Origin: Umbelopsis ramanniana AG
Lineage: Eukaryota; Mucoromycota; Umbelopsidomycetes; Umbelopsidales; Umbelopsidaceae
DNA length: 64,000 nucleotides
Direction of reading: 5' to 3'
Assembly: GCF_025399195.1 (NCBI RefSeq)
Contig: NW_026252125.1
Coordinates: forward strand, 62,001-126,000
In this document: one piece after another, positions 34,410 to 45,716 of the stretch
How the letters are laid out: each line of letters starts with the position of its first letter
Position numbering within the stretch: position 1 is the first letter of the stretch
Notes under the pieces: generated by a model
Seen by the model: the letters and a program-made list of their open reading frames with translations, nothing else
Told to the model about the DNA's origin: nothing
Databases searched by the model: none
Made by a program: the position numbers and the translations under genes

Positions 34410-37306
<2,897 letters not shown>

Positions 37307-37558
37307 CCACTCTATTCGTTTTTATCTTTATTATTTGCACATAGCCATGTTTTTTTTTTTGTAAAACCTTGTCGACATCGGATGCCATAGATGGAGAATA
37401 CAGTACTCTTTTCACAAAGAAAAAATAAAAAAGAAATGAAGAGAGCACGCGCTTAGGGTGAGATGCAACATGTAAAATGCTGCTCAACATCACGTGCCTG
37501 ACGTTTTTTCTCCCTCACGCACTGTCAACGAGCGGCCCCTGTGTTATCCCCCGCTGCA

Positions 37559-39398
37559 ATGCCAGAGGACAACTATGCAATGTCAGAGACTGAGCGGCGA
37601 GTATTGCTTGATTCTATTCCAGAATTCAGTGCATTTGAGTCCCATAAAGAAAATATCACTCAAAAACGCCAAGGTCGGAAAGCCATGGAACTGGCCCATC
37701 TATTCGCCATGAACGACCACGACCGAATAAAGCATCTCGAGGAACAGCGCACTGTTTTTCACACGGCTGTGGAGCATCTCGACGAGCTAGACGACCCTTT
37801 AGAGCCCTATCTTGTGTATATCGACTTCATAGAGGCGTGCCATACACAAGGTCCCAATAGCGAGCTGGTGGAGGTGTTGGAAGAAGCCACTCGACGATTC
37901 GAGCAGGACGAAATGTACCAACACGACATTCGGTACCTTATTTGCTGGACCAAATTTGCGCGTCTTGCCGAAGATTGGCAGGCTATTTTCAAGTTTTTAG
38001 CCGATCATGGTATTGGGTTGACCCATGCGCGTTACTATGAGGAATATGCCCAGATCCAAGAAGAGAATAAGAGGTAAACCCGTCAGGAAAACGGTCGTCG
38101 GTGGGAAAGTCTTTGGGATGAATGGTATTGACGTTGTGCGGCTTTGTGTAGGTACGATGATGCTCTGGCCACGTATCGGCAAGGGATTGCTAAAAACGCA
38201 CGCCCCGTCGCGCGACTGAAGCGGCATTTCGAAGACGCGAAGGTTCGGATACAGCAAAAGAGAGAAGGCGATTCGGGCCAGCGATCAAGGTCTGTTCTGG
38301 GCGAGAAATCCGTTTCGGCACTGGGTAATGCTGGCATTCGCCCACCTTCGTTACATGACGCCCTGGATATGTCGGCTCCTCGAGAAAAATTCTCGGTATT
38401 CGTGCAGTCGGACAACACCTCCAGTGGATCTTCTTCAATCAGCAGCCCTGCCGCCAGTCAGAAACTGGCATCCGATGTCTACCGCCGCAAGGAAAATGTA
38501 CTTGAGAAATCCATGTTCAAGGGTTCCATCCTTCCGCAAAAAACCACCTCCAAACCATCTCCTGCTAAATTTGCTGTGTTTCGAGACGATGTAAGTTCAA
38601 AGACGCCGTTTATATTTGAGAAAATCACAGAGGTTTTTTACTCAAACATTATTTTTTCTATTTTAGATGGGAACAGATAATGATACATCTCAGTCCTCTG
38701 CTTCTCCTCAAGCTAAAGGGTCCAGCAGCAGTGACCATGACGCCGCCGCCCTGAACAACCATGCGGACGGTGCTTCTTTTGCATACTACATGGGTTCAAG
38801 AAGCATATCCTCTTCCATTCCAAACAGTTCGGATCGATTCATGGAGTGGTTTTCATCTGTAAAGTCCACGATCATTCGATCAGAGGACTCACGCGGTAAA
38901 CCTGAGTGGGTAGCAGCCATGCGGTCAAACGATAACGAAAACGGTTCGGAGATGAGCTTTGAGGAAATGAGGACGCTGCATCCCAAATACAAACTGAACA
39001 TGGCTCCAAGCACCTCGTTTGACACTGGTAAGACACTTCAACGCTTGTACAGTACAATAGCTACATGTTGCTCACCTAAGTGAAAATTAGACTTTGAAGA
39101 GAAACCAGTCACGCCGGATTCGCCAACCATCGAAACCAAGGCTGCCATGAAGATAGTCGGCGAACTCTGGACAACAGCTGTCCCTGACTTTGATGAGGAC
39201 AGTATGGACTTGGACGATCGACCGAGGCGGCCTGTACTCAACACCATTTCAGATGAAAACGGCGATGCTCGTCTACCTCTTGGTGAGGTACGTACGCCAA
39301 CGCGACGGCCGCTATCCATTGTCGACCACCGGTCGCCCCTTGACGAACGACTCTTTGGAAGCCCTAGTAAACGACGGCATATCGACTCAAAGCCATAG
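37559..39398 (+). CDS. MAD3: Spindle checkpoint protein Mad3 (BubR1-type, no kinase)
   Basis: Four exons (37559-38073, 38152-38590, 38667-39027, 39091-39398) give 540 residues. The first KEN box (SHKENITQ, about 30-32) is followed by the Mad3/Bub1 homology TPR region (about 40-200; LDELDDPLEPYLVYIDFIEA, RYLICWTKFARLAED). A second KEN box lies near 285 (RRKENVLEK). A GLEBS-like Bub3-binding motif is around 412-426 (EMSFEEMRTLHPKY). No kinase domain follows, so this is Mad3 and not Bub1. Mad3 with Mad2, Bub3 and Cdc20 forms the complex that inhibits the APC/C. Starts at 37559 or 37580 are possible. A TCACGTG box is 63 bp before the ATG. Confidence 0.9.
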
Positions 39399-39702: not shown

Positions 39703-40566
39703 ATGTTCCTTCTTATTCAACACCTCACTGTTCATCGTCTGAAAACCCATCTCAAGTCCCCATCTTCTAATTTCTATCGATTCACCTCTACCATTAATAC
39801 CTCCTCCCTCATGACCGCTGACATCAACTACAAACCTTACGTCCTCTCCGAGAAGCAAACCGACTGGGTCGCTGATCTCGAGTTGGATTCAGCATCGCAG
39901 TCGGGAATGGGCCAAGATCCCGTAAAGGTTCTGGTTTTGTACGGTTCGCTTCGCAAGACTTCGTATTCACGATTCCTAGCCTATGAATTTGCTCGCATTT
40001 TGGATAAACTTGGGGCTGATGTCAAAGTTTTTGACCCTACTGGATTGCCGGTCAAAGACGATGTGTCTCAAAACCATCCCAAGGTACAGGAAATCCGAGC
40101 GTTGAGCACATGGTCGCAAGCGCAAGTGTGGGTTTGTCCTGAACAGCATGGAGCCATTACTGCCGTGTTCAAAAACCAGATTGACTGGATTCCCTTGTCC
40201 ATTGGATCCGTGCGTCCTACCCAAGGACGAACGCTGGCTGTTGCTCAAGTCAGTGGGGGATCTCAAAGTTTCAACACCGTGAACACCTTGCGACTTCTCG
40301 GAAGATGGATGCGCATGTTCACCATTCCAAACCAATCATCTGTTCCCAAAGCATGGACTGAGTTTGATTCCAATGGGAGGATGAAGGAGTCTGACTTGCG
40401 GGATCGGGTGGTGGATGTTGCTGAAGAATTATTCAGAATGACGCTTGTGCTTCGTCCCCATGCTGATCGTTTAGTCGATCGATACAGTGAACGCAAAGAG
40501 AAACTTGAGAAAGGACGCTTGCTCACTCAACAAGAGAAGGAAGAATTCAAAACCATGGCGAAATAG
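39703..40566 (+). CDS. arsH: ArsH-type NADPH-dependent FMN reductase (organoarsenical oxidase)
   Basis: An intronless frame of 287 residues from 39703, or 251 from the internal ATG at 39811. The ArsH core is clear: [20 protein letters not shown] (FMN phosphate loop), [58 protein letters not shown], and an acidic/basic helix tail. ArsH proteins oxidise trivalent methylated arsenic to the less toxic pentavalent form and reduce quinones or metal ions. Residues 1-36 before MTADIN lack acidic residues and are Arg/Lys/Ser/Thr-rich, like a mitochondrial presequence; they could instead be untranslated leader. It lies next to ArsC and ACR3, forming an arsenic cluster, and is convergent with ArsC. Confidence 0.9.
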
Positions 40567-40706
40567 CCCGGATAACCCGCTCGCTCGCCATGCCAATAGA
40601 ATACACTCAGCATCGCTTGTCGGTCATTTCACATGTACAAAGTCAGTCCCTAGATTCATCATTTTTGATTTATAAAAATATATTATGGAAAACACACGGC
40701 CCCACA

Positions 40707-41183
40707 TCATTTGTTTGGCATGGCACAGACATCGCCATAGTATAGAGTATAGGTTGGCGCACGGTCTTCTTTTATAGAGGCTACCAATTCGTTGACTCTT
40801 TCTTGAATTTCGTTTCTTGCTACTTCAAAGTCATGTTCACTACCGCCTGTGGGATCCACAACGTTCCAATCTTCAAATCGTTTGCCCTGCTTCCAACTTT
40901 CAGGCACCGTAGCTCCACAACCACACATGGAGATGATGATGGAGAAGTCATCGGCGGAAAAAGTGTCTATCATTTTAGATGACTGAGTAGTAATGTCTAT
41001 GTGAAGATTTTTCATGGTTTTGATAGCATCTGGATTAAGTCGGCTTTGTCCTTCCAGTGCAGCACTCTCTACGCGGCTGAAAAAAGCGTTTCCAGATTCA
41101 GTTCCGTACAAATGCCGTCCGAATCCCTCGGCCATTTGCGAGCGGCAGGAGTTATGGCGGCAGACAAAGAGCACACTTGACAT
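40707..41183 (-). CDS. arsC: Arsenate reductase, bacterial LMW-phosphatase-type ArsC
   Basis: An intronless frame of 158 residues. The P-loop phosphatase start VLFVCRHNSCRSQMAEGF contains the CX5R motif (Cys8, Arg14). A CGC pair (MCGCGAT, Cys87 and Cys89) lies where family members keep their redox cysteines, and WNVVDPTGG supplies the catalytic Asp region. It should reduce As(V) to As(III) in the cytosol. This is the thioredoxin/LMW-PTP lineage common in bacteria, unlike the Cdc25-like Acr2 used by yeast. The CxC spacing recalls cyanobacterial (Synechocystis) ArsC, so glutaredoxin/GSH coupling is possible. The lack of introns in an intron-rich region suggests transfer or retroposition. It shares a promoter region with ACR3. 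Confidence 0.9.
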   Translation of the reverse strand: MSSVLFVCRHNSCRSQMAEGFGRHLYGTESGNAFFSRVESAALEGQSRLNPDAIKTMKNLHIDITTQSSKMIDTFSADDFSIIISMCGCGATVPESWKQGKRFEDWNVVDPTGGSEHDFEVARNEIQERVNELVASIKEDRAPTYTLYYGDVCAMPNK

Positions 41184-41325
41184 TGTGAAATGAACTGGAA
41201 AGGAATGTTTGGCAAGTGAAGGGATCGATCTTCAGTCGCCTTTTTACATTTTCGAGTTCCGTTAGCCACGTGCGACAGTGTCTGATTGTTTTCCTCAAAT
41301 TAAGCTTCCGCTTGTTTAAAGTGGC

Positions 41326-41459
41326 CCAATCACAGCGCTCTTGACTCAGCATTCTTACCGTTTATCCTCTATTTAAACGTCACTTACCGCAGACCAATCA
41401 CAGTCTATTGACTAAGCATCCCAATTTGGTTTTTTGCCGTCTAACCTTTTTATTTAAAA
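41326..41459. promoter_or_regulatory. Duplicated promoter module between arsC and ACR3 (CCAAT + AP-1/Yap-type sites)
   Basis: Two imperfect tandem units of about 68 bp occur. Unit A has CCAAT (41326-41330), TTGACTCA (41341-41348) and ATTTAAA (41371-41377). Unit B has CCAAT (41394-41398), TTGACTAA (41408-41415) and TATTTAAAA (41451-41459). TGACTCA is the AP-1 core, and TGACTAA is the reverse of TTAGTCA, a known Yap site. The module lies in the 314-bp gap between the divergent arsC and ACR3 start codons and could control both. Confidence 0.6.
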
Positions 41460-41497
41460 CTTCACTTTCCCGCTCCAGCTTTGATCCTGTCAACGCA

Positions 41498-42860
41498 ATG
41501 TCTTCATCTAACCAACCTTGCTTGAAAACAGCAGAATGCAATTACGATTATTGCTACGCCGAAACAGTAGAACCTGCCGTCGGGGCTAAAGGTAGGATCA
41601 TATCAGGCGGATTCACAGTATCATTTCGCCATTGACACCGTTTTCAGATCTTGTCAAGAAACTGGGATTTTTAGATCGCTTTCTGGCTCTATGGATTATC
41701 CTGGCCATGATCGTGGGTGTCCTCATTGGATATTATGTGCCTGGCGTTCAACCAGCATTTGCCACCGTCGAATTCAGTTCAGTGTCCGTGCCCATTGCCA
41801 TTGGACTGCTGGTCATGATGTACCCGGTTCTGTGCAAACTAGAGTACGAGCAGCTACCGAAAATATTTTCACAACGTGAAATATGGGTCCAATTGGCTCT
41901 TTCGTTCGTCTTGAATTGGATTGTCGGTCCTATCCTCATGACGGGTCTCGCATGGGCCACTCTGTTTGATTTGGAAGGATATCGCACGGGCGTGATCATG
42001 GTCGGCATGGCTCGATGTATTGCTATGGTCTTGATCTGGAATGAAATTGCTATGGGCAATCCAGACTACTGTGCCATTCTCATGGTGTTCAATTCTGTCT
42101 TGCAAATTGCTCTGTACTCACCCCTCTGTGTGTTGTTTATCAACATCGTCCCTACTTGGTTCGGTGGACATGTAGACGCAGAAATTCAATTGGAAATGTG
42201 GCCGGTCGTGCAATCCGTCCTGATCTACCTCGGCATTCCTTTAGCTGCAGGTTTCTTAACACGCATACTCCTAATCCGTCTGGTGAATAAGCACTGGTAC
42301 GACACCAAATTTCTTCCACGCATTGGACCCTTTGCCTTGATCGGACTGCTATATACCATCATCGTTATGGTAAGTCGAGCCTGAAGAACACCATTCATCG
42401 AATGTTAAGCTAATGCTATACTCTCCTTTACATCGTATAGTTTGCTAATCAAGGCCATCATATCGTGACCAATATTGGCTCGGTGTTCCGAGTCATGGTC
42501 CCTATGCTCTGCTATTTCATCATCATGTTCTTTGGAACATTCATGGTCTGTCGCCTAATGGGCTTTCCATATACTCAGGCAGTCACCCAATCGTTCACAG
42601 CTGGAAGTAATAACTTCGAATTGGCCATTGCTGTCGCCGTAGGGGTGTATGGCATCAACTCTGATCAAGCTTTGGCCGCTACCATTGGCCCACTTATAGA
42701 AGTGCCAGGTAAGGTTTATCCTATCAATTTAAGTTCTAACGCAACACTCCGACAATACTGACGCAAATTCATTTTAGTATTGCTCATTCTCTCTTATTTG
42801 TCACTTTGGCTGAGGAAGAAGCTCACTTGGAAGAAGGTCGAAACCACCGAAGTAGCATAA
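41498..42860 (+). CDS. ACR3: Arsenite efflux transporter Acr3
   Basis: Four exons (41498-41591, 41648-42369, 42441-42708, 42778-42860) give 388 residues with ten predicted membrane segments. Family blocks are present: LALWIILAMIVGVLIGYYVP, MMYPVLCKLEYEQLPKIF, the ARCIAMVLIWNEIAMG segment with the essential conserved Cys, and FTAGSNNFELAIAVAVGVYG with the conserved Glu. Acr3 exports arsenite (and in some species antimonite) across the plasma membrane by proton antiport. The N-terminus holds four cysteines (CLKTAECNYDYCYAE), which could sense or bind As(III); that is inference. Transcription is divergent from arsC. The last exon is only 83 nt and encodes the final membrane segment and a basic tail. 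Confidence 0.95.
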
Positions 42861-43313: not shown

Positions 43314-44670
43314 TTACAGTAACAAACTCTGTATGTTTTCGCGAAGAATCGTGTCGTTAACAGCATTCATAACGTGCCGTAGTAGCTTGGTATCCGTTGC
43401 GTCCGTGTAATGGGTGTAGATGACTTTTCCCGGATTCTTATTGAGGCGTTCAAACCGGTTGCGGAAATATACTTTGGTATCATTCAGGCTTGTATCGTCG
43501 CCTGCAAAATCCGTGAAGAATTTCGATACGGGAGACGTTAAAATTTTTCGACTGAATACGTCGATCTTGTTCAAGAATAAAATCATCGATGTGGCTTTGA
43601 ACCATTGCGAATTGCATATAGAGTCAAACAACATGAGAGCCTCATGCATTTGGTTCTACCGTGACACACACAGGTTATAAGAGGTTGAACAATGCCCCAG
43701 GTAGCCATTCGGAAATAAAAACTTACAGAATCTTTGTCTTCTACTAAGCAGGCATCGTATCCACTGATAGCCACAGTAAAAAGCACAGCGGTTACATTTT
43801 CAAAGCAATGAATCCTGTACGGACATGGTAATGAATTAGGCAAAAAAAGTTTTAGTCAGCCACACATGCATTATGTTACGTTACCATTTCTTGCGTTCAC
43901 TTCGTTGACCACCGACATCGAACATTCTATAAGTCAACGCTCCTTCTTTGAAAACTGTCTCTGCAATACCCGTCGTCTTCACTCGACTTCGAATAATATC
44001 CTCATCTGTGGGTGTGTAACCTGCCATAAACAACCTGTCTACTTGATTGAAAAAGCTGGTTCACCCAAATAAAAAAAAAAGGCGTCAGGGTTAGGGGTGT
44101 TACAATGGGGTGATACGCAATCGACACTTACATGTTGGCATTGTCGTCCAAAGCATAGCTGCTGCCATGACCATACGCCGCTTGAACACCTTGGTCGTTC
44201 CACAGTGTTTTGATTGGCTCCAGTAGATGGGCTGGATAGGGTTTCCCTCGTTCGATCGCCGGGACGTCTCGAAATAAAGGGACGAGTTCAGCATGATGAT
44301 CGTTTTGCAGCGGGATACCCAAATGGTCCATCGCCTCTAGTATGTTCTGCATTGACATCATGACATTTTCAAATACCACCCCTCGAAACGTCTCTCGTTC
44401 GTCGTCTGTGAAGTGATGCGCATGAATCAATCGCATTTGCTTCAATATCGTGGATTTGCCCGATTCTCCGGCGCCTAGAAACCGTTGAAGTATTAGTCAT
44501 GCAGACGACGAAGAATGCATCTCCCATGTGGAACTACCCCTTGAATGGGCCTTACCTAATAACAATAATTTGACTTCGCGTGCCATACGATACTTTTCTT
44601 CTTTGAGCGCCGAGTCAATGGCCTTCGATCGAGCCGTGGTTGGAGAAGGGGTGGATGCGCAGCTACCCAT
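43314..44670 (-). CDS. Heterotrimeric G protein alpha subunit (copy 3)
   Basis: Five exons (44670-44556, 44474-44132, 44055-43885, 43814-43727, 43655-43314) give 352 residues. Motifs are MGSCAS (myristoylation and palmitoylation), [36 protein letters not shown] and TDATDT, ending in NIQSLLL. It matches copy 2 in length, in the first exon (115 nt), and in the 171-nt and 88-nt exons around switch II, but lacks two of copy 2's introns. Its 343-nt second exon and 342-nt last exon match copy 1. This makes it structurally intermediate and a likely parent or sister of copy 2. It should act in receptor signalling at the plasma membrane; the receptor and effector are unknown. Confidence 0.95.
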
Positions 44671-45716
44671 GTGTGTGGATTATTATGCAGTATGTTGTGC
44701 TATGCAGAGAGAAAGAAAATTGTCCGTGCTCGATGCTGGTGGAATTCAAGGAATGGAGGATGTTGGAGGAGCAGGAATGAGTGGAGACAGTGTGCTATGA
44801 GAAAGAAAAAGGCGAACTGGGAGATTGTCCAGGCGAGTGTTTTTTTCTTTTTAACAAAAAAAAAAAACGGGCAATTAAGATAAGTATTTTGTTTTACCAT
44901 GGCGGTCTTCACGTGGAGTTTAAACGCTTGTCATTCGGTATATTATTTCTCCTACCTCTTTACAGTGTAAGGTATGGAGCCTTGCTTGCTCTCTCAAAAT
45001 AACACTGCTCACTCTGTCATGTATGGGCTGCACCACTCAGCTTGACAAAGGAAGAAACTGCCATCAGCTATGACCTCCGGAGTTGTCACCATGTCATGTC
45101 CGCGATAATGACCACAGGAGAGTCCGAACATGTAGATAAACTATCACATTAGCTTTCAACTGTCACGATCAGGTTTTCTTTTTTAATTCGAGGCTTCTAT
45201 GGCCTATGACATATGCAGAAAATGTAACATCACTAAACCCTTTGTGGGTTCATTTTTCTCGGGCAACGAATCGAGTCGAAAGCCGATGGCGCCTTACCCG
45301 TCCCTTTTTAAATGCATTCTCCAAAAGAGCGGTCAACATAATAGCGATCGACACTGCAGCCCTCTCCACATTTTCACTTCTACACTTTCTCAGCTGCATC
45401 GCATCACTTGCACACGTACGGGCACTTCATACACAAAGTTCATTGTGGATGGATGGCCAGGAGGAACCTCCATTGCCATTCACTATCACGAAGGGGCGAT
45501 GTCTTCCTACGGATCCACTACCATATGTGGTAAAGTACTTCTTTTCATCTCAGAGATCCCAACCTCAGCTCCTATTAATGTATATTGCTGAGAACCCAGC
45601 TCAGCTCAGCTCAGCTACAATGTTTGGCGTTACAAATGTACATTTTTATCATGTGTTGTTATGCAACACCATTTGCTTATGATACATAGGGATTTAAAAC
45701 TACAAAACATGGGAAC
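44671..45716. other. Intergenic region upstream of G-alpha copy 3
   Basis: About 1.05 kb. Two overlapping frames of 130-158 codons (45199-45682) show no domain and skewed composition and are not called. A short AGCTC repeat (about 45598-45617) and CACGTG at 44910-44915 are present. Confidence 0.45.

What the first reader, a model, noticed from the sequence alone, without database searches (positions are those of the whole stretch)
39703..42860. Compact arsenic-resistance cluster (arsH - arsC - ACR3) in a putative early-diverging fungus
Three adjacent genes cover a full route: arsenate reduction (ArsC), arsenite export (Acr3) and oxidation of trivalent organoarsenicals (ArsH), all within 3.2 kb. 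Yeast pairs ACR3 with the Cdc25-like ACR2 and regulator ACR1; this set uses ArsC and ArsH, as in bacterial ars operons. arsH and arsC lack introns while ACR3 has three, suggesting different histories. Gene identities follow from motifs; the transfer history is inference.
Basis: partly seen in the sequence, partly recalled or inferred. Interest (0 to 1): 0.75.

Follow-up and report, generated by a model that had tools for sequence, protein, structure and literature searches.

The report
Fungal arsenic-resistance gene cluster in Umbelopsis
A soil fungus carries side by side an enzyme that reduces arsenate, a pump that expels the product and an enzyme against toxic organic arsenic; related fungi carry linked copies too, and the reductase is a fungal version, with an added tail, of a type otherwise typical of cyanobacteria.

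Summary
In detail: arsH (+), arsC (-) and ACR3 (+, four exons) lie exactly at 39703-42860 in an Umbelopsis genome. It is not operon-like: arsC and ACR3 are divergent over 314 bp and arsH converges on arsC, the reductase/pump layout of yeast ACR2/ACR3 with an unrelated reductase. Histories differ: ACR3 is the ordinary eukaryotic family; ArsH falls in one eukaryotic clade beside cyanobacterial ArsH; ArsC is of the glutaredoxin-type class of cyanobacteria, forms one fungal clade, and has a C-terminal tail with a cysteine in 21 of 21. Best reading: an inducible detoxification cluster of mixed origin: As(V) reduction, As(III) export, oxidation of methylarsenite made by an unlinked ArsM-like enzyme. 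A mitochondrial-type N-terminus on ArsH and a duplicated CCAAT/AP-1-like promoter element are inferences. Algal arsBHC-like clusters and bacterial-type ars genes in fungi are in print, so this is a new variant of a known kind.

The parts
39703..40566 (+). arsH, 287 aa, intronless; NADPH:FMN oxidoreductase, organoarsenical oxidase type
   Evidence: TIGR02690 344.1 bits over its cut-off; PDB 2q62, 2fzv, 7ple; one copy found in this genome
39703..39810 (+). 36-aa N-terminal extension of ArsH before a second in-frame ATG (39811); mitochondrial-presequence-like (4 K/R, 0 D/E, 11 S/T)
   Evidence: present in 5 of the 11 best database models (P0121, P0122, P0123, P0125, P0126), absent from 5, unclear in 1. 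Targeting is inference
40707..41183 (-). arsC, 158 aa, LMW-PTP-fold arsenate reductase of the glutaredoxin-type class; Cys8, Cys13, Cys87, Cys89, tail Cys153
40710..40757 (-). C-terminal tail PTYTLYYGDVCAMPNK of ArsC, seen in the fungal clade only
   Evidence: tail motif with Cys in 21 of 21 (window, 11 named fungi, 9 unnamed environmental proteins); motif in 0 of the next 100 listed hits
41184..41497 (.). shared intergenic region between the divergent arsC and ACR3 start codons, 314 bp
41288..41352 (+). first copy of an imperfect ~65-bp tandem repeat, with CCAATCACAGCGCTCTTGACTCAGCAT at 41326-41352
   Evidence: self-alignment score reached by 1 of 400 dinucleotide shuffles and by 2 of 203 314-bp tiles of the window
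41360..41419 (+). second copy of the repeat, with CCAATCACAGTCTATTGACTAAGCAT at 41394-41419 (TGACTAA is listed as a Yap1 site in PMC6545440)
41498..42860 (+). ACR3 arsenite efflux transporter, 388 aa, exons 41498-41591, 41648-42369, 42441-42708, 42778-42860
   Evidence: TIGR00832 401.8 bits over its cut-off; splice sites by prediction

Best explanation
A eukaryotic arsenic-detoxification cluster. ArsC reduces arsenate to arsenite, probably with glutathione/glutaredoxin; ACR3 exports arsenite; ArsH oxidises trivalent methylated arsenic, which an unlinked ArsM-like enzyme of the same genome would make. arsC and ACR3 are probably co-induced from the shared promoter by AP-1-like (Yap-type) and CCAAT-binding factors, as yeast ACR2 and ACR3 are by Yap8/Yap1. 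ArsH is probably made in two forms, cytosolic and mitochondrial. The cluster is of mixed ancestry: eukaryotic ACR3; ArsH and ArsC of cyanobacterial affinity that recur together in Umbelopsis, Bifiguratus and Apophysomyces. Shown: gene identity, layout, linkage in other assemblies (from contig lengths and tags), tree positions. Inferred: activities in this organism, regulation, targeting, direction of transfer.
For: Family scores; ArsC matches solved glutaredoxin-type arsenate reductases best, by sequence (2l17, E 1.5e-32) and by fold (E 1.9e-11, TM 0.88 by target length, model pLDDT 91.4). Cys87 and Cys89 are invariant in 39 sequences; Cys8 is kept wherever the gene model is not N-truncated (9 of 9). 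63 of the 80 nearest prokaryotic arsC loci have arsH and/or an ACR3 within 6 kb: 26 both, 22 arsH only, 15 ACR3 only, 17 none. Linkage in 7 of 11 named ArsC-bearing fungal assemblies. Glutaredoxin matches (10) and an ArsM-like gene at C112:4693-5351 exist in the genome. ArsH and ArsC trees both place Apophysomyces next to Umbelopsis, the ACR3 tree does not.
Against: No expression, enzyme or phenotype data. ArsC scores below the TIGR02689 cut-off. ArsH of Synechocystis is said to have no clear function in resistance (PMC4010505 passages). The promoter element is absent upstream of arsH (304 bp) and of the second ACR3 (800 bp), so one regulon of three is not shown. In U. isabellina the ArsC tag (INT43_006904) is about 40 numbers from ACR3/ArsH (_006945/_006946). 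Linkage was not shown in 4 of 11. The ArsM-like gene is below the NF008823 cut-off (67.2 of 263 bits for the best exon).
Confidence: 0.82

Rival explanations
1. One bacterial (cyanobacterial arsBHC-like) operon was transferred whole, then rearranged and given introns.
For: Gene content equals arsBHC; 79 of the 80 nearest prokaryotic ArsC loci are cyanobacterial by title and 26 of 80 hold all three genes; ArsH is beside cyanobacterial ArsH.
Against: ACR3 sits in the eukaryotic family; even the nearer cyanobacterial ACR3 type (44-46% identity) lies outside it, and the Synechocystis type is far. ArsH of fungi and algae is one clade (100/98) apart from 12 cyanobacterial rows. Bacterial sampling in the ArsH tree was 12 cyanobacteria and 3 proteobacterial PDB chains only.
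Confidence: 0.1
2. Differential loss: an old fungal or eukaryotic cluster inherited vertically and lost or split in most lineages, with little transfer between fungi.
For: Algae have arsBHC-like clusters (PMC7826186 passages); ArsH and ACR3 share a contig in Fennellomyces and neighbouring tags in the alga Coccomyxa elongata (g5229/g5230); the fungal ArsC clade with Heterosigma has 99/96 support.
Against: ArsC was found in only 6 named fungal genera among the listed hits; Umbelopsis ACR3 groups with three basidiomycetes (95/88), apart from Bifiguratus and Basidiobolus.
Confidence: 0.3
3. ArsC is not an arsenate reductase but an LMW protein-tyrosine phosphatase recruited beside ACR3 by chance.
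For: PF01451 family; below the TIGR02689 cut-off.
Against: Best solved relatives by sequence and fold are arsenate reductases; CGC redox pair kept in all 39 aligned; recurrent linkage to ACR3/ArsH; a separate ordinary PF01451 match lies on contig C6.
Confidence: 0.05
4. Assembly artefact or contamination.
For: None found; a bacterial-type gene in a fungus always raises the question.
Against: Flanked by fungal genes (Mad3/BUB1 and G-alpha) on a contig with intron-bearing ACR3; near-identical proteins in several independent Umbelopsis assemblies.
Confidence: 0.01

Closest known systems
Cyanobacterial arsBHC operon (Synechocystis; PMC4010505, passages seen)
   Same: Same three functions: Acr3-type pump, ArsH, glutathione/glutaredoxin-type ArsC
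   Different: Not co-directional, each gene has its own promoter or a divergent one; ACR3 of another subfamily; ArsC has a Cys tail; no ArsR expected
Green-algal ArsH-type arsenic neighbourhood (Chromochloris, Coccomyxa, Klebsormidium; PMC7826186, passages seen)
   Same: Eukaryotic three-gene set with homologs of arsBHC
   Different: Algal ArsC proteins are said there to be nearer to various bacteria than to each other; the fungal ArsC here is one clade with a tail
Yeast ACR1-ACR2-ACR3 cluster (PMC6545440, passages seen)
   Same: Reductase and pump divergently transcribed from one promoter; a Yap1-type site (TGACTAA) is present here
   Different: Reductase unrelated (LMW-PTP fold instead of rhodanese/Cdc25); no bZIP gene beside it (nearest match about 40 kb away); ArsH present
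Bacterial-type ars genes of Aspergillus fumigatus (PMC5552862, passages seen)
   Same: ArsC, ArsH and other bacterial-type ars genes in a fungus, ascribed there to operon transfer
   Different: Not compared here by sequence; Ascomycota, no cyanobacterial-type ArsC in the listed hits

Membership tests
ArsH (TIGR02690) | score over the curated equivalog cut-off | tested here: met
   344.1 against 292.25 bits
ArsH | oxidation of methylarsenite | not testable with these tools
   needs an enzyme assay
ACR3 arsenite efflux transporter (TIGR00832) | score over the curated equivalog cut-off | tested here: met
   401.8 against 282.8 bits
Glutathione/glutaredoxin-type arsenate reductase (TIGR02689) | score over the curated equivalog cut-off | tested here: not met
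   128.6 against 157.6 bits; so it is called 'of this class', not an equivalog
Glutathione/glutaredoxin-type arsenate reductase | LMW-PTP fold with P-loop Cys and a CxC redox pair (roles of the Cys recalled) | tested here: met
   Cys8 and Cys87/Cys89, fold
Glutathione/glutaredoxin-type arsenate reductase | glutaredoxin as electron donor | not testable with these tools
   only that glutaredoxin-family matches exist in the genome
Cyanobacterial arsBHC operon | co-directional transcription unit | tested here: not met
   arsC is on the minus strand
Yeast ACR cluster | divergent reductase and pump genes | tested here: met
   314 bp between the two ATGs
Yeast ACR cluster | Yap8-type regulator gene beside the pump | tested here: not met
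   nearest bZIP match C39:61797-61958, about 40 kb away
Yeast ACR cluster | Cdc25/rhodanese-type Acr2 reductase | tested here: inconclusive
   not in the cluster; 10 rhodanese matches in the genome, none recognised as Acr2 by an HCX5R look at 8 of them, introns may hide one

The most novel reading that the evidence does not exclude
Early-diverging fungi hold a distinct arsenate reductase subtype, a cyanobacterial-type ArsC with a fungal C-terminal tail whose conserved cysteine (Cys153 here) acts as a built-in resolving thiol, changing the redox relay; it travels linked with an ArsH that is dually sent to cytosol and mitochondria, so that the cluster also protects mitochondria from methylarsenite. 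Its divergent promoter would be a case of the yeast reductase/pump layout evolved again with an unrelated reductase.
Probability: 0.25. Interest if true: 0.6.

Novelty: new variant of a known kind. Interest (0 to 1): 0.4.

Why it matters
If true it shows how an arsenic detoxification route is assembled in eukaryotes from genes of different origin and kept linked over a deep split among fungi, and it gives a small test case (ArsC with and without its tail) for how a reductase changes its electron relay. It also names a genetically simple target for arsenic studies in common soil fungi.

Tried and rejected
Tried: (1) Whole-operon transfer from cyanobacteria: rejected as sole history, because ACR3 is eukaryotic. 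(2) Intron content as evidence of origin: not used; 12 of 21 ArsC-clade models lack the N-terminal P-loop part, which may mean an intron there in other species or annotation errors. (3) The element TTGACTMAGCAT as a genome-wide regulon mark: not supported; it occurs 4 times in the genome (reversed control: 1), about what base counts give, though 2 of the 4 lie in this promoter. The longer CCAATCACAGN{2,8}TTGACT occurs 3 times, 2 here (reversed control 0); the third lies some 0.9 kb before an ORF that looks by eye like an acyl-CoA dehydrogenase. The other two TTGACTMAGCAT sites are, by eye, one inside a coding ORF and one in no ORF of 90 aa or more. Both patterns were chosen after seeing the promoter. 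(4) Acr2 search: inconclusive. (5) Origin of the fungal ArsC: holding cyanobacteria and Ascophyllum together (AU p 0.405), or cyanobacteria, fungi and Ascophyllum together (p 0.266), is not rejected, so donor and direction stay open. (6) Position of Cys153 relative to Cys8 could not be measured: no coordinates are given by the tools (looked for a file and found none); its block has mean pLDDT 69. (7) Literature: ten searches listed no paper that I recognised from title and abstract as describing this cluster in Umbelopsis or other Mucoromycota; only listings and passages were seen, and most subscription papers are not held.
Full report
WHAT IS THERE. The window is part of a 22.8-Mb, 123-contig genome (G000:C39:62001-126000) of an Umbelopsis species: the best named matches of all three proteins are Umbelopsis. 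arsH (+, 39703-40566), arsC (-, 41183-40707) and ACR3 (+, 41498-42860, three introns of 56, 71, 69 nt) are intact and over the Pfam or NCBIfam thresholds, except that ArsC stays below the TIGR02689 equivalog cut-off (128.6 of 157.6 bits). Upstream lies a Mad3/BUB1-type gene and downstream a G-alpha gene on the other strand, so the cluster sits among ordinary fungal genes.

LAYOUT. arsH and arsC converge with 140 bp between stop codons; arsC and ACR3 diverge with 314 bp between start codons. The intergenic region holds an imperfect tandem duplication (41288-41352 and 41360-41419) whose copies share CCAATCACAG-N4/5-TTGACT(C/A)AGCAT. Its self-alignment score was reached by 1 of 400 dinucleotide shuffles and by 2 of 203 tiles of 314 bp over the window; tiles over the promoter itself were not taken out. 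One copy holds TGACTAA, which a review lists as a Yap1 site, and the same review describes yeast ACR2 and ACR3 as divergently transcribed from one Yap8-bound promoter (PMC6545440, passages). No Yap8-like half site (TGATTAAT) was seen, and the element is missing upstream of arsH and of the second ACR3. No bZIP gene adjoins the cluster.

LINKAGE ELSEWHERE. The protein search gives no genomic context, but contig lengths and locus tags do. ArsC, ArsH and ACR3 share a contig in U. ramanniana (1,277,525 bp), U. nana (2,008,878; ArsC _03747, ArsH _03748), U. isabellina (1,665,568; ACR3 _006945, ArsH _006946, but ArsC _006904) and Bifiguratus adelaidae (206,518; ACR3 _01598, ArsC _01599); ArsC and ArsH in U. 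sp. PMI_123 (306,621); ArsC and ACR3 in U. vinacea (1,986,733) and Basidiobolus ranarum (a 4,305-bp contig). That is 7 of the 11 named fungal assemblies with this ArsC; for U. sp. AD052, U. isabellina NQZ79, Apophysomyces ossiformis and Jimgerdemannia no shared contig appeared in the listed 120 hits per search. Outside this set ArsH and ACR3 share a contig in Fennellomyces and have neighbouring tags in the alga Coccomyxa elongata. These are inferences from lengths and names; the contigs were not read.

HISTORIES. ArsC: a scan of 84,980 prokaryotic species' genomes kept the best 80 of 253 relatives; 79 are cyanobacterial by title and one is a 'Gracilibacteria' MAG contig (the scan patterns came from an alignment of fungal, algal and cyanobacterial rows, which favours this class). 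Of these 80 loci 26 have both ArsH and ACR3 within 6 kb, 22 ArsH only, 15 ACR3 only and 17 neither (contig ends cut some). In a tree of 53 rows (19 of the 20 best hits, the fragment P0016 dropped; 25 of 80 cyanobacterial) the fungal ArsC are one side of a branch (95/86), apart from thioredoxin-type outgroups (100/100). Without tail columns and with 33 rows the clade stays (98/80) and joins Heterosigma (99/96), but alternatives on the donor are not rejected. ArsH: 42 eukaryotic rows (the window and 41 of 120 listed proteins; the kingdom of the unnamed ones is inferred) form one clade (100/98) beside 12 cyanobacterial rows, rooted on 3 proteobacterial PDB chains. ACR3: 57 rows (45 of 120 listed, 2 of this genome, 10 cyanobacterial); the window's copy groups with U. 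ramanniana inside an Umbelopsis clade (100/99) within the eukaryotic family, and the Synechocystis-type pumps are very distant. A result that does not fit simple descent: Umbelopsis ACR3 groups with three basidiomycetes (95/88), while Bifiguratus and Basidiobolus ACR3 group elsewhere (88/84). ArsH and ArsC trees agree with each other in placing Apophysomyces beside Umbelopsis (ArsH 99/92, ArsC 99/88), whereas Apophysomyces ACR3 groups with Mucor and Rhizopus (85/89). So ArsH and ArsC may have moved or been kept together, with the resident ACR3 as partner; this is an inference from one genus, and the ArsC and ArsH rows come from different Apophysomyces isolates.

THE REDUCTASE. Nearest solved proteins are arsenate reductases, first those that the depositors call glutaredoxin arsenate reductase (2l17, 2myu, 2l19; from Synechocystis by recall) by sequence (E 1.5e-32) and by fold (E 1.9e-11). 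Cys87 and Cys89 are invariant in the 39 aligned sequences. New here is a tail, (P/A)(T/A)Y(S/T)LY...C, in 21 of 21 proteins of the clade (the window, 11 from named fungi and 9 unnamed environmental ones) and in 0 of the next 100 listed hits; only 1 of 80 cyanobacterial proteins has any Cys at its end. The predicted model is confident (pLDDT 91.4), the tail's first part too (block 141-150: 90), its end with Cys153 less so (69). A resolving or metal-binding role of Cys153 is a proposal.

ARSH TARGETING. The reading frame starts 36 residues before a second ATG (39811) that matches the usual ArsH start. The extension has 4 K/R, 0 D/E and 11 S/T. Of the 11 best database models P0121-P0131, five have such an extension, also without acidic residues (35-41 aa), five start at or near the second Met, and one (P0129) is unclear. 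Acidic residues make up 13% of the rest of the protein, so their lack is notable, but the rows are related. The first ATG has T at -3 and the second C, so leaky scanning is possible. Dual targeting is therefore plausible, not shown.

REST OF THE PATHWAY. The genome has one ArsH match, one TIGR02689 match, a second ACR3 (C33:2170-3138) without ArsC or ArsH among the ORFs of at least 120 aa in its 10-kb stretch, ten glutaredoxin-family matches, and an ArsM-like gene on C112 (4693-5351) whose first exon matches arsenite methyltransferase structures (5evj, E 1.5e-34). ArsH thus has a likely internal source of methylarsenite.

KNOWN OR NEW. An arsBHC-like three-gene neighbourhood in green algae and the presence of related ArsH in fungi are described in PMC7826186 (passages). 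PMC5552862 (passages) reports transfer of ArsC into fungi and proposes transfer of an operon to an ancestor of A. fumigatus. PMC8618186 (passages) says fungal arsM genes usually lie in clusters with other arsenic genes. PMC11370035 (passages) finds arsH in 47.6% and acr3 in 85.3% of its fungi. Hence the kind is known; the fungal ArsC clade with its tail, and this trio in Umbelopsis, Bifiguratus and (in part) Basidiobolus, are a new variant as far as the searches listed in 'tried and rejected' show.

Noticed in passing
G000:C112:4693-5351 (L106, L107, L108): ArsM-like arsenite methyltransferase gene in at least three exons, with an ORF that looks by eye like a Zn2Cys6 transcription factor nearby on the same strand.
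   Followed up: partly
G000:C33:2170-3138 (L009): Second ACR3 gene of this genome near a contig end; its relatives are U. vinacea copies.
   Followed up: partly
P0216, P0231, P0240: Environmental proteins in which ArsH is fused to a PF22784 (one also PF00782) phosphatase-type domain.
   Followed up: no
   Followed up: no
P0004-P0020: 12 of 21 ArsC-clade models lack the N-terminal P-loop part and 11 of these start at MAEG: possible intron or annotation error.
   Followed up: no
L027: A contig titled Candidatus Gracilibacteria carries a cyanobacterial-type ACR3, ArsC and ArsH set; it groups with cyanobacteria and may be misbinned.
   Followed up: no
window 43314-44679 (-) and 36829-39398 (+): Flanking genes: G-alpha subunit; Mad3/BUB1-type gene and an M41 peptidase exon.
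   Followed up: partly
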